Shown piece after piece: positions 42,096 through 50,583 of a DNA stretch of 64,000 nt; the stretch's first letter is position 1, and each line of letters opens with the position of its first letter. Under the pieces are notes generated by a model that made no database searches, was not told the DNA's origin, and saw only the letters and a list, made by a program, of their open reading frames with translations. The stretch is from Lysobacter sp. (lineage in GTDB: Bacteria > Pseudomonadota > Gammaproteobacteria > Xanthomonadales > Xanthomonadaceae). The stretch covers positions 2,551,234 to 2,615,233 of the forward strand of contig JABFRN010000001.1 of assembly GCA_013141175.1 (NCBI GenBank). Reading direction: 5' to 3'. The position numbers and the translations under genes are program-made.

Positions 42096-42866
42096 TTATT
42101 TCGGCGCCAGCCGCGTCGCGCCATCGAGGCGGATGGTTTCGCCATTCAGATAAGGGTTGCCGAGGATGTATGCGACGAGATCCGCGAATTCTTCCGGTTT
42201 GCCGAGCCGCGATGGAAACGGAATCGAAGCCGACAGCGACTGCTGCACCGACTCCGGCATGCCGTCGACCATCGGCGTCCAGAAAATTCCCGGCGCCACG
42301 GTCATGACGCGGATCCCGAAGCGGGCGAGTTCGCGCGCCATCGGCAGCGTCATCGCGACCACGCCACCCTTGCTGGCGGAATACGCGGCCTGGCCGATCT
42401 GTCCTTCGTAGGCGGCGACCGAGGCGGTGTTGACGATCACCCCGCGCTCGCCATCGCTGCCGGGTGCGTTGTGCTGCATCACCGCAGCAGCGGCCTTGGC
42501 GACGTTGAAGCTGCCGACCAGATTCACCATCACCGTGGTCTGGAACTGCGACAGCGGCATCGCCCCGTCCTTGCCGAGCACGCGGCCCGCGCCGAGGATG
42601 CCGGCGCAGTTGATCGCGACATTGAGGCCGCCGAGAAAGGCGTTCGCCGCGTCGACATTCGCGACCACGCCGGCTTCGTCGCTGACATCGGTGCGGAAGT
42701 ATCGGGCGTTGGCTTCGCCGAGTTCGGCGACGGCGGCGGTGCCCTTGTCGTCGTTGAGATCGAACAGTGCGACCCTGCCGCCCCGGGCCACGAGATGTCG
42801 GGCGACGGCGAGGCCGAGGCCGGAAACGCCGCCGGTGACGATGGCGCGGGTCGAGAGGAGGAGCAT
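42096..42866 (-). CDS. SDR-family dehydrogenase (3-hydroxyacyl-CoA dehydrogenase type II-like)
   Basis: A 256-residue short-chain dehydrogenase. The cofactor loop is TGGVSGLGLA (11-20), with FDLNDD favouring NAD. NCAGI and the catalytic Tyr162 and Lys166 in AAYSASKGG are present. The C-terminal GNPYLNGETIRLDG matches the HSD10/3-hydroxyacyl-CoA dehydrogenase II group of fatty or branched-chain acid oxidation. The substrate is inferred only. Confidence 0.87.
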   Translation of the reverse strand: MLLLSTRAIVTGGVSGLGLAVARHLVARGGRVALFDLNDDKGTAAVAELGEANARYFRTDVSDEAGVVANVDAANAFLGGLNVAINCAGILGAGRVLGKDGAMPLSQFQTTVMVNLVGSFNVAKAAAAVMQHNAPGSDGERGVIVNTASVAAYEGQIGQAAYSASKGGVVAMTLPMARELARFGIRVMTVAPGIFWTPMVDGMPESVQQSLSASIPFPSRLGKPEEFADLVAYILGNPYLNGETIRLDGATRLAPK

Positions 42867-42978: not shown

Positions 42979-43065
42979 GTGGCCGAGCCCCCAACGGCGG
43001 TTCTACCCGCTCCACCGCAATACCCACAACTCTATCCACCAGTCGTATCCAACGAGGAAGCTGTC

Positions 43066-43521
43066 ATGGCTGATACGAGACTGAAGGCAGTGGCCACTGC
43101 CGAACGCCCGCGGACCCTGTCCGTAGGCACAGGAGGGTCCGCAACGGCAGAAGTCGTCGGCGATCTCCAAGGCCATTCCATTTCCGGCCATGCTGTTCGT
43201 GGCCATACGTCTTCCGGCCATGCTGCTTACGGCGCTTCCGCCGTGACCGCTTGCTGCGCGCAGCGCCTTCCGGGCCTCACGCACCCCTTTTTCGCCCACA
43301 CCTCCCCGTCCCTGCGCCCGATCTCCGTTCGGGCCGGTGCCGCCATGCGTTCTGGCGCCCCCCGCCAGACGCAGTCGATGCGGACCGGGCTCCCCTGTTG
43401 CCGTCCAGTCCAGGCGCTTGGGGCGCCGTGGACGGATCGGCAGCGGACGCGAGTCGCACATGCCCTCGGGAAGGTGTCGATGGGCGCGGACCGCGATCCC
43501 TCCATCGTCGAAGCCTGCTGA
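43066..43521 (+). pseudogene. Orphan 5' end of an effector-like gene
   Basis: ATG 43066 starts MADTRLKAVATA, matching the N-terminus of the second effector (MADIRQKAVATA at 47703), with about 30 of 36 bases identical. The leader before the ATG (TCCACCAGTCGTATCCAACGAGG) also resembles that of the second effector. After codon 12 the similarity ends. The open frame continues to 43521 but encodes low-complexity Gly/His/Ser then Arg-rich sequence with no domain, so I take it as the remnant of a deleted or recombined effector gene. Confidence 0.5.
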
Positions 43522-43712: not shown

Positions 43713-44552
43713 ATGTCGCAACATGCTTCCCTTGTCCTGTTGCTCGCTGTCGCGGCGCTGACCACCGCCTGCAAGCCGTCCGCTCCCGAGGCGGCGATCG
43801 TCGCCTCGGCGCCGCAAGCCGCCGCGTCCGCAGCGGTCCCGCCCGCCACCCGGCCGCCCGCAGCCAGGACTCCCGATGCCGCCAAGGCCGATGCCGCGCG
43901 CATCGTTGCCGACGTGATGCGTGAGCAGTATCCGGACGGCTACGACGAGAAACATGATTGCTGGTCGTTTTCGCGCAAGTCCGCGGACGGCGAGACCGGA
44001 TACTGCATGCGATCCCATCCCGCGCAGTGGGCCGATGGCGAAAACGGGAATTCGTTCTACTTCATCGCCAGCAGCGCAAGCGATATCAACGACGATCTGC
44101 GCTATGCGTATGGATCGGTGGACCCCGGCCTCATGGGCGCATTCAAGGTATCGGTCGCTTCCGACGGCGGATGGACGCTGGAGTCCGCGTCGAAAGCCAT
44201 GGACTTCGGCACGGCGGGCGCATGCGGTTGCGAGGATGCCAGGCTAGTCAGATTGGGGCGCGGCTATTACGGCTGGATGTTCACCAGTGGCGGCATGTGG
44301 CAGGGCGTCGTGGTCTCCAACCACGAGATCGTCGCGCCGCATGATGGCAGTTTCAAGAACCTCAGCGCGATTCCAGAAATACGCGAAGAGGCGCAAGACG
44401 TGCGGTACACGGTCACGGTCGTCGATAGCGATCCGGATATGGATGTCTTTCCGCTGAAGGTGGAAAAATCGGCATCCGGCAAGCAGGCCGGTGAGCGCAT
44501 CGTCGGATTCGACCGCAACAAATGGGCATATGGAACGATTGGCGATTTTTGA
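43713..44552 (+). CDS. Putative immunity lipoprotein paired with effector 1
   Basis: A 279-residue lipoprotein. The signal peptide ends in ALTTAC with Cys20 as the lipid site and Lys at +2, so outer-membrane anchoring is expected. An Ala/Pro-rich tether (residues 22-55) leads to a globular part with DCWSFSRKSADGETGYCM, GACGCED and MWQGVVVSNHEI, with paired cysteines. No enzyme family is recognised. The gene ends 39 bp before a peptidoglycan-degrading effector, the usual order of xanthomonad T4SS immunity-effector pairs. Periplasmic inhibition of that effector is the proposed role. CAGGAG lies 9 nt before the ATG. Confidence 0.7.
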   Translation: MSQHASLVLLLAVAALTTACKPSAPEAAIVASAPQAAASAAVPPATRPPAARTPDAAKADAARIVADVMREQYPDGYDEKHDCWSFSRKSADGETGYCMRSHPAQWADGENGNSFYFIASSASDINDDLRYAYGSVDPGLMGAFKVSVASDGGWTLESASKAMDFGTAGACGCEDARLVRLGRGYYGWMFTSGGMWQGVVVSNHEIVAPHDGSFKNLSAIPEIREEAQDVRYTVTVVDSDPDMDVFPLKVEKSASGKQAGERIVGFDRNKWAYGTIGDF

Positions 44553-44591
44553 TCTTCAACAGACACCGACACCTACCCGAGGGGAAGCGAC

Positions 44592-46754
44592 ATGGCAGGA
44601 AACGATAAATTGGATCAGCGTTGGGATGCATCGAAGCAAGTACTGGTCGATGCCGCGAGAACGGCGGGCGTCGATCCCGACATCATGGTCAAGATTTCCG
44701 GGTTCGAGTCGGGCTTCAATTCCCATGCGAAGCCGGTTTCGAGCGATCCGGACAAGAACAAAGTCACGCAGTTCGACGGCACCAAGGCCATCTCGTCGGC
44801 ATACGGGTATGGCCAGTTCCTCAACGGCACCTGGACCGAAATGGTCCAGAAGTACGGCGAGAAATACGGCATTCCGGATGCCGCCCAGATGACCAGGGAA
44901 CAGGCCAACGCTCCCGCCATCCGCGACAATCCCCAATTGCAGGCGGCGATGCTCGCCGAGTTCACGCGCGAAAACGTCGCCAAGGGCGCGAAGCTGGGAG
45001 GTCCCGATGCGGATGCCAATGTCTACGCCTTCCACAATCTGGGTAGCGAAGACGCGACCAAATTCCTCAACGCGATGCGCGAGAACCCCAGTCAACGCGC
45101 GGATCAGGTGCTGTCGGCGAAAGTCATCAGCGGTAATCCGTCGCTGTACGGAGATGGCAGCCGGACGCTTGCGGAATCCTACAGCGTGATGGGCCAGCAC
45201 ATGGACCGTTACGAGAAATACGCCACAGAGGCGCGCACCATGGCCGGACAAACACCGACGCCGGACAACACGCCGTCGCAACCAACCCCGGGTGCTTCCC
45301 AAAAAGGCGATCCCAACTGGCCGGCGCCGGGCAACTACACCATCAACAAGGCCGACAAGCCACGCGAAGGCGAGGGCGAATTCGGCACGCCGCGCGGCGA
45401 TCACAGGCACGGCGGCATCGACATCGTCGGCAAGGTCGGCGATCCGATCGAATCGATGCGGCCGGGCAAGGTGATCGCGGTGAAGCCCAACAACGGCGAT
45501 GCCGGCAACATGATCACGATCGATCACGGCGGCGGCCTGACCACGACCTACATGCATCTGGACAAGATCAAGGTGCAGTTGGGGCAGGATGTCACGGAAA
45601 ACACGGTCATCGGCACCATGGGCCGCAGCGGCAATACGCCCAAGCAAGGCGACACCCATCTGCATTTCGAGACCCGCGAGAACGGTGTCGCGGTCGATCC
45701 GCGCAAGTACCTGACGCTCCCGGGACAAACCCAGAACCCGAACTCGCAGGGCTCCGCGATGGCCGACGGAAAATTGTCGTCGGGCGACAAGGGTCCGGAG
45801 GTGGAGCGCTTGCAGAAGCAGTTGAACACGCTCGGTTATACCGATGCGGCTGATCGCAAGCTCGGCGAGGACGGCAAGTACGGGAAGAACACCAAGGATG
45901 CGGTGGAACAATTCCAGCGCGAAAACGGCCTGAATCCCACCGGCGTCGCCGATGCCGCGACGCTCAAGATGGCGGACCGCGGCATGACCCGGTTCGCGAT
46001 GAAGGACGACGTGCTGCAGCCCGGCGAGCGCGGCCCCGATGTGCGCAATCTGCAGCAGTCGCTGGCCGATGCGGGCTACAAGGGCACGGACGGCAAGCCG
46101 CTGGCGGTCGATGGCGTTTACGGCGACGGCACGAAAGCCGCCGTCGGGGCCTACCAGAAGGCCAATGGGCTTCCGGAGACCGGCGTCGCGGACAAGGCGA
46201 CGCTGGTGAAGATGGGCGAGATCATCGTGGTGGAAACCCGTGAGGCGAAGCTGCCGACGGACCAGACCAAGCCTGCGGACCAGACCAAGCCGACCGATCA
46301 GGCAAAGCCGGTAGATCAGACCAAGCCGACGGATCAACCGACGCAAACCGACAAGCCACTGCTCTCCAATCCCAACCATCCGGACAACAAGCTGTATCAG
46401 CAGGCGATGTCGAATCTGGAGCAATTGGGGCCGAGCGGCGGATTCAAATCGCGCGAAGAAATGGAGAAGGCCGCCGCTGCGGTGGCGGCGGATGCCAAGG
46501 CCACCGGCCTTCAGAGCATCGATCACGTCAGTCGTACGTCCGCGCCGAACGGCCAGAATTTCCTGGTCGCGGTGCAGGGCGATCCGACGAGTCCGGCGGC
46601 GAAGAATTCCTATATCGATTACGGCCAGGCGGTGAATCAGACGGTTGCGCAGAGCACCGGCATGGCCGAGGCGCAGAAGCCCGCCGTGCAGGCGGCCCAG
46701 CAGACCGACCAGCCGCAGCAGGAGCCGAACAAGGTCGTGGCCGGTGTCCGATAA
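44592..46754 (+). CDS. T4SS antibacterial effector 1: SLT lysozyme-like + M23 peptidase + two PG-binding domains + XVIPCD
   Basis: A 720-residue multidomain protein without a signal peptide. Residues 1-215 are a transglycosylase-like domain with Glu39 in GFESGFN and GYGQFLNGTW. Residues 262-378 are an M23 (LytM-type) endopeptidase with HGGID (His273, Asp277), YMHLD and THLHFE (His356, His358). Two PG_binding_1 repeats lie at 397-462 and 478-542 (GDKGPEVERLQ, GERGPDVRNLQ). A DQTKPTDQ-rich linker (557-589) joins the C-terminal domain 590-690 with NPNHPDNKLYQQA, GLQSIDHV, LVAVQGDP and QAVNQTV, then a Gln-rich tail. The last domain matches the XVIPCD that VirD4 recognises in xanthomonad type IV secretion. 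Predicted role: injected cell-wall toxin. GAGGGGAAG precedes the ATG. Confidence 0.85.
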   Translation: MAGNDKLDQRWDASKQVLVDAARTAGVDPDIMVKISGFESGFNSHAKPVSSDPDKNKVTQFDGTKAISSAYGYGQFLNGTWTEMVQKYGEKYGIPDAAQMTREQANAPAIRDNPQLQAAMLAEFTRENVAKGAKLGGPDADANVYAFHNLGSEDATKFLNAMRENPSQRADQVLSAKVISGNPSLYGDGSRTLAESYSVMGQHMDRYEKYATEARTMAGQTPTPDNTPSQPTPGASQKGDPNWPAPGNYTINKADKPREGEGEFGTPRGDHRHGGIDIVGKVGDPIESMRPGKVIAVKPNNGDAGNMITIDHGGGLTTTYMHLDKIKVQLGQDVTENTVIGTMGRSGNTPKQGDTHLHFETRENGVAVDPRKYLTLPGQTQNPNSQGSAMADGKLSSGDKGPEVERLQKQLNTLGYTDAADRKLGEDGKYGKNTKDAVEQFQRENGLNPTGVADAATLKMADRGMTRFAMKDDVLQPGERGPDVRNLQQSLADAGYKGTDGKPLAVDGVYGDGTKAAVGAYQKANGLPETGVADKATLVKMGEIIVVETREAKLPTDQTKPADQTKPTDQAKPVDQTKPTDQPTQTDKPLLSNPNHPDNKLYQQAMSNLEQLGPSGGFKSREEMEKAAAAVAADAKATGLQSIDHVSRTSAPNGQNFLVAVQGDPTSPAAKNSYIDYGQAVNQTVAQSTGMAEAQKPAVQAAQQTDQPQQEPNKVVAGVR

Positions 46755-46903
46755 TCGGTTGTAGGGGGGCCGTTCATGGGGTTAGATTCCCGGCGCCGGG
46801 GCGCATCGCGTTCCGGCGCCGTTCCGCTGGGTCGGTCGGCTTTGCGGAGCATGGGCCGTGCTGCATGCGGGCATCGCAATCGAATCCAGAGGAGCAGGGC
46901 GTC

Positions 46904-47653
46904 GTGTCGAATATGATGAGAATGCTTGCGCTGTCCGGCATGCTGGCGATCGCCGCCTGCAAGGCCGAACAGCACGCGCCCCCGGTGGAGCGCGCGTCCG
47001 TGCCGGAAGCGGCTGCGCCGGCACAGGGCGGCCAGGGATCAGTCCAGGGGGAACATCGCATGACCGTGTTGAATGAGTTGTTGGCTCTGTTCGCCACTGA
47101 AGACGGTACGCGCTGGCAGTCCTACGACGGCATCGCGGGCGTTGCGTGGCGGGATCCCCAACCCATCGAAACGCCCGAAGTGGCCGATCCCGGCGCACGG
47201 TACTCGCGCTCCGGCACGCTGACGCTCGCGGGATTCGGCGAGACCGACCTGCCTGATGGAAACGTCGGTGCCGATGCCGGCGTGCGTCGCGGCAACGAAG
47301 GCGAATCGGGCGTCACCCTCAGCGGCGACGCCGATCGGGTGAACGAGGTCGCGGTGGTCAAGTTCTATCCGAGCGACGACTACGAGAACATTCTCCGCCA
47401 GCAGTTCCCCGCAGGCGCGACGCTCATGCCGGAAGCCGATCGTTGCGCGCTGGATTTCGGAACGCAGGCCGAAAACTCCGGCAACAACACGTTCTATCGC
47501 ATCGTGATCGGCGCTGCCACGCTCGCCCACGTCGAAGCCTTCATCGATGAGGACGCCGGCCCGTCCGGCCCCGGATCCACCACTTTCGTGTTCTACAGGA
47601 CAAAGCCCGAACAAAGGATTGCGGCAATGCAATGTCATGCGGCCCAGCCATAA
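46904..47653 (+). CDS. Putative immunity lipoprotein paired with effector 2
   Basis: A 249-residue lipoprotein with lipobox LAIAAC (Cys19, Lys at +2). An Ala/Pro/Gln-rich tether is followed by a domain with RWQSYDGIAGVAWRDPQ, LTLAGFGETDLPDG and AIAAMQCHAAQ-like ending (MQCHAAQP). No known family is recognised and it is not obviously similar to the first immunity lipoprotein. GTG 46904 is chosen because GAGGAG lies 9 nt upstream; ATG 46913 is the alternative. The gene ends 49 bp before effector 2. Confidence 0.68.
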   Translation: MSNMMRMLALSGMLAIAACKAEQHAPPVERASVPEAAAPAQGGQGSVQGEHRMTVLNELLALFATEDGTRWQSYDGIAGVAWRDPQPIETPEVADPGARYSRSGTLTLAGFGETDLPDGNVGADAGVRRGNEGESGVTLSGDADRVNEVAVVKFYPSDDYENILRQQFPAGATLMPEADRCALDFGTQAENSGNNTFYRIVIGAATLAHVEAFIDEDAGPSGPGSTTFVFYRTKPEQRIAAMQCHAAQP

Positions 47654-47702
47654 ACGGCTGTGCGCGACCCTCCACCGTCGATATCCATAGAGGAGCGAAC
47701 TG

Positions 47703-49799
47703 ATGGCTGATATCCGACAGAAAGCAGTGGCCACTGCCAATCATTACGACCAAGGCAACATCGCCGGCCTGGATGCTGCGATGACCCGACGCCTGATCGC
47801 GTCCACCGTGCTGACGGAAAGTCATGGCGGGGATCTTGCCGTCACCAACAAGCAGGGCTATGTCGGCCGCTATCAGGCCGGTGCCGGCTGGTTGGCGGAT
47901 GCCGGCTACGTCGATGCCGACAAACTCAAGGCGTCGATGGCGGGCTACAAGAACGAATGGGCCTGGGCGCAGGCCGGAGGCATGACGAAGTTCCTCGAAA
48001 ATCCGTCGAACTGGAACAACGGCCTGAGTCTGGAGAAGTACAAGGCCTCCGACGACCTGCAGGATCGCGCGTTCAAGACCAACTGCGACAAGACCTATCA
48101 GCGCGCGGTCAAGGAAGGCGTGCTGGATGCCGACGATTCGCCGGAAAAAGTCGCCGGGTTCCTCAAGGCGCGGCATATCTCCGGTTACGGCGGCGCCGTG
48201 GCCGCAGCCACCGGCGGTCGCGTGTACGCGGACAGCAACGGCACCAGCAACTACGATTACATGCACGACATCACCCGCAATCGCGATGGCTTGAATCAAG
48301 TCATGTCGCAGGGCGGGCAGGTGCAGTCGCCCGCTTCGAAACCGGCGCCGATGCAGTCATCGGCACCATCGCATTTCGCGGCCAGCGGTTTTCTTGCGCA
48401 GCAGACGCCCGAAGTGCGCGCCTATCTCGATCTGGTCGCATGGAAAGAGGTGCGCCCGGGTCATTCGCTCAATGCGGATGGTTCTCCGGCGGGTTATCGC
48501 GACCGCAATGGCGTGCCGGGCAGCATGGGCACCATGCCCGAGTCGGCGGTCGCCAACAACGGTACGTTCCCGCGCGACGAACTGCAGTACAACGTCGGCC
48601 GCTACCAGATGAAGCAGGTCGACGTGGACGACATGCGCAAGCGCTACGACTCGAAGATCGACGATTTTTCGCCGGAGAGCCAGGACCGCATCGCGGTCGC
48701 GAAGATGAAATACCGCGACGTGGTCGAGCCGCTGCAGAACGGCGATATCCGCACTGCGATCCACAACGGCGGGAAGGAATGGGCGTCGCTGCCGGGTTCG
48801 CCGTACGGACAGGTGCAGCAGGGCTACACCGTCGATAAGGCGGTCGATTACTACAACCAGCGTTTGAGCTTCCACCGTGCGCTCGATCAGGGCCAGACGC
48901 CGCCCGCGCAGACCGATGCGCGGCCGACGCCAAGCCAGGGCGGCGGCATCAACGACACGCTGCTGCTCAAGGGCGAGCGCGGCGAAGGCGTGAAACACCT
49001 GCAGGAAGCGCTCAACAAGGCCGGTATCCGCGATGCGGAGGGCAAACCCCTGCCGACGACCGGCAACTTCGGCGACATGACCGATGCGGCGGTACGCAAA
49101 TTCCAGGAGCAGAAAGGCCTGGAAGTGGACGGCAAGGCGGGCAAGGACACGCTGACCGCACTCGGGATCCATCCGGGCCAGAAGCAGGCAGCGACGACCG
49201 GCAATGTCGCCGAGAGGACCGAACAGGCCGTGCGCGGATACCAGGAGCAGACGACGCCTGGCCAGGGGGGCAATGCCGGCAAGCAGCCTTCGACCGAACC
49301 CGCGAAGACGCCGCCGAGCGGCAATTTCGGCGACAGGACCGAAGAGGCCGTGCGCAAATACCAGGAGCAGGCGCCGACGACCAACGCCACCGACAAGCCG
49401 CTGATCTCGAATGCCGCGCATCCGGACAACAAGCTGTATCAACAGGCGCTCTCGAATCTGGAGCAACTGGGGCCGAGCGGTGGCTTCAAGTCGCGCGAGG
49501 AGATGGAAAAAGCAGCCGCTGCCGTGGCGGTGGACGCCAAGGCGACGGGCTTGCAGAGCATCGATCACATCAGCCGTACGACGGCGCCGAGCGGTCAGAA
49601 TTTCCTGGTGGCGGTGCAGGGCGATCCGACGAGCGCGGCGGCGAAGAACTCCTACATCGACTACGGGCAGGCGGTGAGCCAGACCGTCGATCAGAGCACC
49701 AGGATGGCGCAGCCCTTGCAACCGTCATCGTCGACGCAGAAAGCGCCATCGGAAGAAGCGCCGACGCTGGACAGCCAGACGCGCGGCAAGACGGTTTGA
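47703..49799 (+). CDS. T4SS antibacterial effector 2: two lysozyme-like modules + PG-binding domain + XVIPCD
   Basis: A 698-residue protein without signal peptide. Residues 1-200 form a lysozyme-like module (LTESHGGDLAV with Glu39; GYVGRYQAG). Residues 233-395 form a second one (LVAWKEVRPGHSLNADGSP with Glu249; NVGRYQMKQVD). A PG_binding_1 domain lies at 420-490 (LLKGERGEGVKHLQEALNKA). Two partial copies of its second half (GNVAERTEQAVRGYQEQ, GNFGDRTEEAVRKYQEQ) serve as linker. The C-terminal domain 567-667 is XVIPCD-like and about 88 percent identical to that of effector 1 by my count. The tail is rich in Gln, Ser and Pro. Predicted role: peptidoglycan hydrolase delivered to rival bacteria. 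GAGGAGCG lies 6 nt before the ATG. Confidence 0.83.
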   Translation: MADIRQKAVATANHYDQGNIAGLDAAMTRRLIASTVLTESHGGDLAVTNKQGYVGRYQAGAGWLADAGYVDADKLKASMAGYKNEWAWAQAGGMTKFLENPSNWNNGLSLEKYKASDDLQDRAFKTNCDKTYQRAVKEGVLDADDSPEKVAGFLKARHISGYGGAVAAATGGRVYADSNGTSNYDYMHDITRNRDGLNQVMSQGGQVQSPASKPAPMQSSAPSHFAASGFLAQQTPEVRAYLDLVAWKEVRPGHSLNADGSPAGYRDRNGVPGSMGTMPESAVANNGTFPRDELQYNVGRYQMKQVDVDDMRKRYDSKIDDFSPESQDRIAVAKMKYRDVVEPLQNGDIRTAIHNGGKEWASLPGSPYGQVQQGYTVDKAVDYYNQRLSFHRALDQGQTPPAQTDARPTPSQGGGINDTLLLKGERGEGVKHLQEALNKAGIRDAEGKPLPTTGNFGDMTDAAVRKFQEQKGLEVDGKAGKDTLTALGIHPGQKQAATTGNVAERTEQAVRGYQEQTTPGQGGNAGKQPSTEPAKTPPSGNFGDRTEEAVRKYQEQAPTTNATDKPLISNAAHPDNKLYQQALSNLEQLGPSGGFKSREEMEKAAAAVAVDAKATGLQSIDHISRTTAPSGQNFLVAVQGDPTSAAAKNSYIDYGQAVSQTVDQSTRMAQPLQPSSSTQKAPSEEAPTLDSQTRGKTV
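49198..49372 (+). repeat. Direct repeats in the effector 2 linker
   Basis: Segments at about 49198-49252 and 49318-49372 are near-identical, both echoing the end of the PG_binding_1 domain coding sequence at about 49060-49110. They encode repeats of GN(F/V)...RTE(Q/E)AVR.YQEQ. Confidence 0.75.
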
Positions 49800-49829
49800 T
49801 CGCTCGCGTTTCGATGTTGCAGATACGCC

Positions 49830-49858
49830 AACGGGCCATCCATCGATGGCCCGTTTTT
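49830..49858 (+). terminator. Terminator of the effector locus
   Basis: An 11-bp stem (49830-49840 with 49845-49855) with CATC loop and T run, 30 bp after effector 2. It also lies downstream of the convergent gmk gene. Confidence 0.85.
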
Positions 49859-49895: not shown

Positions 49896-50507
49896 TCAGC
49901 GCAACAGCCCTTCGATCATTCCCGCATGACGTTTCGTCTGTGCCTCGCGGCGCAGGCGGCTGGCGGTGAAGATCGAACACATCTCCGCGACCGCGGTGTC
50001 GAAGATTTCGTTGACGATCACGTAATCGAACTCGTGGTAGTGCGACATCTCCTCGCGCGCGGCGGCGAGGCGGCGCGCGATGGTGTCTTCGCTGTCCTGC
50101 CCGCGCTTGCGCATGCGCTCTTCCAGCGCTTCGCGCGATGGCGGCAGGATGAAGATGCCGACCGCGTCCGGCACTTTCTCGCGGACCTGGCGCGCGCCCT
50201 GCCAATCGATCTCGAGCAGTACGTCGCGACCGGCGGCCAGCTGCGGTTCCACGGACTGCCGCGCGGTGCCCTTGAAGTCGCCATGCACCAGCGCATGCTC
50301 GAAGAAGTCGCCGGCGTCGATCATGCGCTGGAATTCGTCCGCGCCGATGAAGTGGTAATGCTGGGCGTGGCGTTCCCCCGGGCGCGCCGCGCGCGAGGTG
50401 AACGAGATCGACAGGGCGATGTTCGGATCGCGCGCCAGGCAGGCGTTGACGATACTGGACTTGCCCGCACCCGAAGGTGCCGCGACGATGAAAAGGGTTC
50501 CGCGCAT
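49896..50507 (-). CDS. gmk: Guanylate kinase
   Basis: A 203-residue P-loop kinase that phosphorylates GMP to GDP. The N-terminal loop is APSGAGKSSIV (Lys16). The GMP-binding region has SFTSRAARPGERHAQHYHF and LEIDWQGARQVR. The ATG at 50507 gives MRGTLFIVAAPSGAGKSS; the frame open upstream to 50579 is not needed for the fold. yicC lies 76 bp upstream on the same strand, a common pairing. Confidence 0.95.
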   Translation of the reverse strand: MRGTLFIVAAPSGAGKSSIVNACLARDPNIALSISFTSRAARPGERHAQHYHFIGADEFQRMIDAGDFFEHALVHGDFKGTARQSVEPQLAAGRDVLLEIDWQGARQVREKVPDAVGIFILPPSREALEERMRKRGQDSEDTIARRLAAAREEMSHYHEFDYVIVNEIFDTAVAEMCSIFTASRLRREAQTKRHAGMIEGLLR

Positions 50508-50583
50508 GGGAGTTGACTGGCCGGAGACGTGAGCCGAAGTCGCGGCAGCATGCCTCATCTCCGGTCGCAAGTCATGCAAGGGA

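What the first reader, a model, noticed from the sequence alone, without database searches (positions are those of the whole stretch)
43713..49858. Two tandem effector-immunity pairs of a bacteria-killing type IV secretion system
Seen: lipoprotein (43713), multidomain wall hydrolase (44592), lipoprotein (46904), second wall hydrolase (47703), then a terminator. Both hydrolases end in a domain with NP/AAHPDNKLYQQA, TGLQSIDH, FLVAVQGDP and QAV.QTV followed by a Gln-rich or Gln/Ser-rich tail. Established knowledge: this is the pattern of XVIPCD, the signal recognised by VirD4 in the X-T4SS of Xanthomonas, Stenotrophomonas and Lysobacter, whose toxins are paired with periplasmic lipoprotein inhibitors. 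Inference: this is a two-toxin antibacterial island, and the particular domain combinations and both lipoproteins may be new families.
Basis: partly seen in the sequence, partly recalled or inferred. Interest (0 to 1): 0.88.

Follow-up and report, generated by a model that had tools for sequence, protein, structure and literature searches.

The report
Two antibacterial wall-cutter and immunity pairs
A relative of the soil bacterium Lysobacter carries, side by side, two genes for cell-wall-cutting weapons that a type IV secretion system probably injects into rival bacteria, each preceded by a lipoprotein gene that probably protects the owner; comparison with relatives suggests that each lipoprotein is matched to one of the two blades on its weapon.

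Summary
Both hydrolases end in a Pfam X-Tfes_XVIPCD domain (E 1.6e-23 and 1.2e-22), the genome has VirB/VirD4 genes of the bacteria-killing type and 20 XVIPCD places above cut-off, and each hydrolase follows a lipoprotein gene. It is an ordinary kind of locus: two X-Tfe/X-Tfi pairs.

Relatives show something less ordinary. Lipoprotein 1 tracks the N-terminal transglycosylase domain of effector 1 (14 of 14 from the toxin side); lipoprotein 2 tracks the N-terminal unnamed domain of effector 2 (19 of 22; 10 of the 11 places not used before). A third lipoprotein in this genome is two such modules fused, and matches an effector with two warheads. Over 89 pairs, 109 of 113 immunity modules sit beside the predicted warhead (shuffles at most 58). 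The second warheads here, an M23 peptidase and a lambda-type lysozyme domain, have no module beside them; that M23 stands outside the M23 group that has one. The site also holds different cassettes in related species.

The parts
43713..44552 (+). LP1: lipoprotein, presumed immunity protein (X-Tfi) matched to the N-terminal transglycosylase-like domain of effector 1
   Evidence: lipobox by eye; no Pfam/NCBIfam family; homologue upstream of the SLT domain in 14 of 14 SLT places found from the toxin side
44592..46754 (+). E1: effector 1 (X-Tfe), 720 aa
   Evidence: domain scan
44613..45224 (+). E1 SLT domain, related to endolysin gp144 / lytic transglycosylase (phage phiKZ, name recalled)
   Evidence: PDB 9xps and 3bkh, E about 5e-10; Pfam SLT_4 just under cut-off; profile place
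45405..45701 (+). E1 Peptidase_M23 domain, metal-ligand columns intact, outside the LP3C-linked M23 group
   Evidence: PF01551 E 1.7e-26; columns; trees
45792..46205 (+). two peptidoglycan-binding domains of E1
   Evidence: PF01471; profile places
46368..46661 (+). E1 XVIPCD, presumed VirD4 recognition signal
   Evidence: PF20410
46904..47653 (+). LP2: lipoprotein, presumed immunity protein matched to the N1 domain of effector 2
   Evidence: no Pfam/NCBIfam/PDB family; homologue upstream of N1 in 19 of 22 N1 loci found from the toxin side
47703..49799 (+). E2: effector 2 (X-Tfe), 698 aa
47703..48299 (+). E2 N1 domain, unnamed, lysozyme-like by motif only (invariant Glu39, nearly invariant GRYQ)
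   Evidence: alignments A1, A3; no Pfam or PDB relative
48378..48887 (+). E2 lambda-lysozyme-like (GH104, name recalled) domain
   Evidence: PDB 8kea E 2.3e-26, 1am7 and 3d3d E 3e-12
48978..49154 (+). peptidoglycan-binding domain of E2 (the full-length one)
   Evidence: PF01471, profile place
49410..49712 (+). E2 XVIPCD
   Evidence: PF20410
49830..49858 (+). intrinsic terminator-like hairpin with T run
42096..42866 (-). left border gene of the cassette site: short-chain dehydrogenase
   Evidence: PF00106; synteny
49896..50579 (-). right border gene of the cassette site: guanylate kinase (gmk)
   Evidence: PF00625; synteny

Best explanation
These are two effector/immunity pairs of the Xanthomonadales-like bacteria-killing type IV secretion system. 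VirD4 would recognise the C-terminal XVIPCD of each effector; the T4SS would deliver it into the periplasm of a rival; the PG-binding domains would anchor it and the other domains would cut glycan strands (E1 SLT; E2 N1 and the lambda-type domain) and peptides (E1 M23). LP1 and LP2 would sit in the owner's periplasm and block at least the N-terminal domain: LP1 the SLT domain, LP2 the N1 domain. In this effector family immunity looks modular, one lipoprotein domain per warhead, with modules fused or set side by side when warheads are fused. The second warheads here (E1 M23, E2 lambda-type domain) have no module of their own in the operon; how they are tolerated is open. Shown: sequence homology, gene order, module-warhead linkage. 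Inferred: secretion, toxicity, binding, and which domain is inhibited.
For: XVIPCD by Pfam. Genome: 23 XVIPCD matches, 20 over cut-off; VirB1-, B2-, B4-, B6- and D4-like proteins by Pfam, VirB10 by PF03743, B7-, B8-, B9- and B11-like genes by position and reading only, B8 with a tail rich in Ala, Gln, Gly and Pro and a large B7-like lipoprotein. Module linkage, modules directly upstream of an effector: LP1-SLT 14/14, LP2-N1 19/19, LP3N-MUR 35/38, LP3C-M23 41/42; 109 of 113 in all, 10000 shuffles mean 42.0, max 58; collapsed by genus 43 of 47, shuffles max 29. Toxin-side searches: SLT 14 of 14 with LP1; MUR 29 of the 30 loci given (of 44 places) with LP3N and/or LP3C in the 1.5 kb flank; N1 19 of 22 with LP2 directly upstream, 11 of the 22 being places already counted, 10 of the 11 others positive. 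M23 trees: the 15 LP3C-linked domains part from the window's group at 100/100, and again with long rows left out.
Against: With the XVIPCD of the same gene held constant, distance correlation stays for LP1, LP2 and LP3N (partial r 0.63, 0.61, 0.74) but not for LP3C with M23e1 (-0.19) and not clearly for M23e3 (0.43 against 0.47 for the XVIPCD). 23 lipoprotein ORFs of these families have no recognised warhead ORF directly downstream and 14 of 103 effector ORFs have no such lipoprotein directly upstream. The N1-type effector E4 lacks an LP2 upstream in six genomes of the genus including this one. LP1 and LP2 might also block the second warheads.
Confidence: 0.85

Rival explanations
1. One lipoprotein neutralises the whole two-bladed effector: LP1 covers SLT and M23, LP2 covers N1 and the lambda-type domain, as reported for bifunctional T6SS wall hydrolases with one immunity protein.
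For: Only one lipoprotein lies before each effector here. Bifunctional T6SS effectors that appear to need a single immunity protein are mentioned in PMC12135965 (passages).
Against: LP1 and LP2 homologues occur with SLT- or N1-bearing effectors that have neither M23 nor the lambda-type domain, so these second warheads do not explain them; related SLT effectors with another M23 type carry an extra LP3C module.
Confidence: 0.3
2. The second warheads are covered in trans, for instance E1's M23 by the LP3C half of the lipoprotein LP3 at C1:3592354-3593214 of the same genome.
For: LP3 is found in 10 of 11 sampled genomes of the genus; the one without is rated 75% complete.
Against: E1's M23 lies outside the M23 group that has LP3C beside it, so LP3C may not recognise it; no candidate is known for the lambda-type domain.
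Confidence: 0.25
3. Chromosomal wall-remodelling enzymes with lipoprotein regulators, not weapons.
For: M23, SLT and PG-binding domains also occur in housekeeping enzymes.
Against: XVIPCD on both; no signal peptide on the effectors by eye; different contents at the same site in related species; SLT in only 14 of 297 family genomes at E 1e-10 and LP2 in only 21 of 297 at E 0.001.
Confidence: 0.03

Closest known systems
X-Tfe/X-Tfi pairs of Xanthomonas citri and Stenotrophomonas maltophilia (e.g. XAC2609/XAC2610, Smlt3024/Smlt3025)
   Same: C-terminal XVIPCD, wall hydrolase and PG-binding domains, immunity gene upstream, usually a lipoprotein (PMC6536674 sections 13-14 read; PMC10933484 abstract and section 11; PMC6759196 passages)
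   Different: Other toxin domains (GH19 in XAC2609) and no detected homology of the immunity proteins; here two catalytic domains per effector, with linkage pointing to one immunity module per warhead
T6SS double-blade (WHIX) effectors
   Same: Two toxic domains on one delivered protein, each needing its own immunity protein (PMC12135965, abstract and passages)
   Different: T6SS delivery; two immunity proteins. In the X-T4SS family the modules can be fused in one lipoprotein, and in this window the second blade has none beside it
Bifunctional T6SS wall hydrolases such as TseP (amidase plus lysozyme)
   Same: Two wall-cutting activities in one effector (PMC11893102, search listing and start of abstract only)
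   Different: T6SS; different enzymes; its immunity arrangement was not read by me
Polyimmunity proteins of polymorphic toxin systems
   Same: Immunity domains fused in one protein (PMC3482391, abstract and passages)
   Different: Polyimmunity loci are described there as a backup against varied toxins; here the fused modules match the fused warheads of the neighbouring effector

Membership tests
X-Tfe (Xanthomonadales-like T4SS effector) | C-terminal XVIPCD | tested here: met
   PF20410 over cut-off in E1 and E2
X-Tfe (Xanthomonadales-like T4SS effector) | X-T4SS encoded in the same genome | tested here: met
   VirB1-, B2-, B4-, B6-, D4-like, VirB10; B7, B8, B9, B11 by reading only; B3 and B5 by position only (no Pfam match)
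X-Tfe (Xanthomonadales-like T4SS effector) | VirD4-dependent secretion and killing | not testable with these tools
   needs experiment
X-Tfi (immunity protein) | lipoprotein gene directly upstream of the cognate X-Tfe | tested here: met
   same order in relatives; lipobox judged by eye
X-Tfi (immunity protein) | binds and inhibits the cognate toxin | not testable with these tools
   complex prediction unavailable
XAC2610-type X-Tfi | homology to solved XAC2610 (PDB 4QTQ per PMC10933484) | tested here: inconclusive
   LP1 and LP2 profiles give only weak, unrelated PDB matches (best E 0.044 ribosomal protein for LP1, 0.25 oxygenase for LP2); a distant relation by fold is not excluded and 4QTQ was not compared directly
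Double-blade effector (one immunity protein per toxic domain) | a cognate immunity module for each of the two warheads | tested here: not met
   no LP3C-like module beside E1's M23 and none known for E2's lambda-type domain; for E3/LP3 elsewhere in the genome both modules are present
gp144-type lytic transglycosylase (E1 N-domain) | sequence homology to a solved member | tested here: met
   9xps, 3bkh E about 5e-10 over residues 66-202; catalytic Glu not checked against it
lambda lysozyme family, GH104 (E2 middle domain) | sequence homology to lambda lysozyme | tested here: met
   1am7, 3d3d E 3e-12 over part of the domain; activity not testable; family number recalled

The most novel reading that the evidence does not exclude
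In X-T4SS weapons immunity is written as a code: one lipoprotein module per warhead, fused or separate as the warheads are, while a second class of warheads (the E1-type M23 group, the phage-type lambda-lysozyme domain) is carried without any module. The owner would then have to tolerate an unguarded blade, for example because it only works after the first blade has cut, because it is held inactive until delivery, or because the lipoprotein on the first domain shields it.
Probability: 0.45. Interest if true: 0.68.

Novelty: new variant of a known kind. Interest (0 to 1): 0.52.

Why it matters
It gives a simple, testable rule for which part of a multi-domain injected wall hydrolase an immunity protein recognises, assigns four unnamed lipoprotein modules to four kinds of warhead, and points to unguarded warheads as the odd cases to study. 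It would also help to annotate immunity genes, orphan ones included, from sequence. The locus itself is one more pair of pairs of a well-known system.

Tried and rejected
Recent copying of the XVIPCD between E1 and E2: within the last 480 bases 273 of 320 (85%) are identical between E1 and E2, no more than with the orthologues in the nearest relative (86% and 89%), so the sharing is old. LP2-like remnant upstream of the N1 paralogue E4: tblastn found nothing convincing. Common origin of the four lipoprotein modules: profile-profile comparison found none (LP1/LP2 probability 0.3%; highest LP1/LP3C 9%). N1 as a detectable relative of SLT, MUR or the lambda-type domain: not found (highest 5%, with MUR), nor in the PDB. 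Anti-phage defence: no PADLOC match. Of 19 weak LP1 matches (E 1e-5 to 1e-3) I fetched 4 (L120-L123); none showed an LP1 domain; the other 15 were not examined and may hold distant relatives. The first M23 tree carried a long-branch warning; rebuilt without four long rows, and without one, the 15 LP3C-linked domains still part from the window's group at 100/100 and 100/99, while the exact place of L243 and L248 is unsure.

Mistakes mended: one search translated minus-strand loci without turning them; redid it. Rows dropped: in the recount two of 105 effector ORFs, one a second view of the same place and one the second half of a broken gene; still hold them. Own-genome loci L028-L045 were not entered in the pair counts. 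Of 25 LP2 places, 19 have N1 directly downstream; of 17 strong LP1 places, 14 have SLT. Not all LP3 places listed were fetched; I chose mainly the better-scoring ones. One search repeated at a higher limit with the same result.
Full report
The locus. Four + strand genes lie between a short-chain dehydrogenase (42096-42866, -) and guanylate kinase (49896-50579, -): LP1 (43713-44552), E1 (44592-46754), LP2 (46904-47653), E2 (47703-49799). The gaps LP1-E1 and LP2-E2 are 39 and 49 bases, E1-LP2 149 bases, and a hairpin with a T run closes the group at 49830-49858.

Domains. E1: a domain related to endolysin gp144 and a lytic transglycosylase of known structure, Peptidase_M23, two PG_binding_1, XVIPCD. 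E2: an N-terminal domain N1 without Pfam, NCBIfam or PDB relative, a lambda-lysozyme-like domain, PG_binding_1, XVIPCD. N1 has an invariant Glu39 and a nearly invariant GRYQ, which recalls lysozyme-like folds; that is inference. The M23 metal-ligand columns (H, D, H, HxH) are intact in E1. LP1 and LP2 have no convincing match to any family or solved structure.

The secretion system. The genome (one contig, 4155120 bases) has 23 XVIPCD matches, 20 above cut-off. VirB4-, B6-, B2-, B1- and VirD4-like genes are at C1 about 4.106-4.115 Mb, with B3- and B5-like genes by position only; VirB10 with B7-, B8-, B9- and B11-like neighbours, these by reading, at C1 about 0.112-0.118 Mb. Ten of the 18 other effectors above cut-off were scanned: calpain-like protease, lipase 3, GH-E nuclease and Tle1-like domains appear, some matches below their cut-offs, and several have no named toxin domain.

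Relatives from the lipoprotein side. In 297 genomes sampled from the family (own genome included), LP1 homologues are in 35 genomes at E 0.001, with 17 places at E 1e-28 or better; LP2 homologues in 21 genomes, 25 places. I fetched the 16 other strong LP1 places plus 4 weak ones and the 24 other LP2 places. SLT follows LP1 in 14 of 17, N1 follows LP2 in 19 of 25. In these places M23 beside LP1 and the lambda-type domain beside LP2 occur only in this genus. A search with the lambda-type domain found 29 places in 22 genomes; four, all in this genus, are in frames of 687-918 aa, the other 25 in frames of 163-364 aa that look like phage endolysins (by length; not read). One of the four, G137, has it with an M23 domain and no recognised lipoprotein upstream.

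A third lipoprotein shows the rule. The genome has a second island, E4-LP3-E3 at C1 about 3.591-3.596 Mb. LP3 homologues are in 62 of 297 genomes and many matches stop near residue 150 on one side or the other, so LP3 is two modules, LP3N and LP3C. Forty neighbourhoods, then sixteen more, of the places listed were fetched. Stand-alone LP3N lies before effectors with a lysozyme-like domain (MUR, which has a weak profile match to the lambda-type domain), stand-alone LP3C before M23 effectors, fused LP3N-LP3C before M23+MUR effectors (13), LP3N and LP3C as separate neighbours before MUR+M23 effectors (2), and LP3C-LP1 fused before SLT+M23 effectors (3: G189, G204, G216).

Counts. 103 effector ORFs, 89 with one of these lipoproteins directly upstream; 109 of 113 modules have the predicted warhead, shuffles mean 42.0, max 58. 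Exceptions: LP3N before SLT (L106), LP3C before a short SLT ORF near a contig end (L115), LP3N-LP3C before M23 only (L180, cut by a contig end; L181). Read from the warhead: SLT 14/14, N1 19/19, MUR 35/35, M23 39/44, lambda-type 0/3. The five M23 are E1 in the window, G013 and G061, one in L187 of the same M23 group, and L194, where an LP3C piece lies in another frame. Because loci were picked by lipoprotein, I repeated it from the toxin side: SLT 14 places, all with LP1; MUR 44 places, 30 given as loci, 29 of them with LP3N and/or LP3C in the 1.5 kb flank, the miss cut off on that side; N1 in named genomes 22 loci, 19 with LP2 directly upstream.

The unguarded blades. In a tree of 26 M23 domains of the E1 type, 15 from loci with LP3C (14 directly upstream, one about 700 bases off) stand apart at 100/100 from 11 others: two M23 proteins without XVIPCD and 9 effector domains including the window's, none of these nine with LP3C directly upstream. 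The split stays when long rows are left out, with 7 of the 9 then kept. In the nine the M23 comes after another N-terminal region. So E1's M23, like E2's lambda-type domain, looks like an added blade without its own module. Whether LP1/LP2 cover it, LP3 does in trans, or it needs no cover is open.

Co-variation. Distances between lipoprotein module and warhead correlate (r 0.63 to 0.91). Holding the XVIPCD of the same gene constant, LP1-SLT 0.63 (n 11), LP2-N1 0.61 (n 16) and LP3N-MUR 0.74 (n 25) stay, but LP3C-M23e1 is -0.19 (n 15) and LP3C-M23e3 0.43 (n 21; 0.47 for the XVIPCD). This supports three of the four pairings beyond shared ancestry and not the fourth.

The site. The dehydrogenase and/or gmk-yicC genes border effector cassettes in related genomes with different contents: LP1-E1-LP2-E2 in G013, LP2-E2 alone in G061, two other M23 effectors in G137, E4-LP3-E3 in G089 and G115; with only the gmk side in the stretch, E4, an M23 effector and LP3-E3 in G172, and an M23 effector with LP3-E3 in G204. 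So this is a site where cassettes differ within the genus. XVIPCD ends of E1, E2 and E3 share 81-85% DNA identity, which could serve recombination; that is inference.

Known or new. X-Tfe/X-Tfi pairs are well described (PMC6536674 sections 13 and 14 read; PMC6759196 passages; PMC10933484 abstract and section 11). One immunity protein per blade is known for T6SS double-blade effectors (PMC12135965, abstract and passages), and fused immunity domains are known as polyimmunity proteins (PMC3482391, abstract and passages). In the listings, which cover open-access papers only, I saw no paper on matched, fused immunity modules in the X-T4SS.

Noticed in passing
G000 C1 about 112.6-117.6 kb and 4.106-4.115 Mb (L048, L025): The X-T4SS genes are split: virB7-11-like genes in one place, virB1-6-like genes and virD4 in another, about 150 kb apart if the contig is circular. 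A passage of PMC6536674 says Xanthomonadales loci seem to have one operon with all eleven VirB genes.
   Followed up: partly
L027:3227-4285 (C1 about 3.591 Mb) and relatives L143, L174, L247, L248, L249: The N1-type effector E4 has no LP2 gene directly upstream in six genomes of the genus, though G137 (L133) has one; three of the six (G089, G115, G172) have no LP2 match.
   Followed up: partly
window 43066-43107, in ORF 42979-43521: The reading MADTRLKAVATAER resembles the start of N1, and a similar one recurs at the same site in G137 (L243); possibly the remnant of a lost effector.
   Followed up: no
L106, L135, L137, L246, L280, L281, L187, L196: Some SLT, N1, MUR or M23 effectors lack a clear XVIPCD match and end in a different or diverged C-terminus, several with a PAPPMQ or APTPxxQ motif and a Gln-rich tail; maybe a diverged recognition domain.
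   Followed up: partly
L282:7801-9807 (Rhodoferax MAG): An N1 domain sits at residues 401-600 of a 668-aa ORF without XVIPCD or any Pfam match: the domain may be used by another delivery system.
   Followed up: partly
L107, L114, L116, L178, L179, L198, L200, L204 and others: 23 lipoprotein ORFs of these families lie without a recognised warhead directly downstream; some may be orphan immunity genes, others are broken, at ends of the stretch, or beside effectors of other types.
   Followed up: partly
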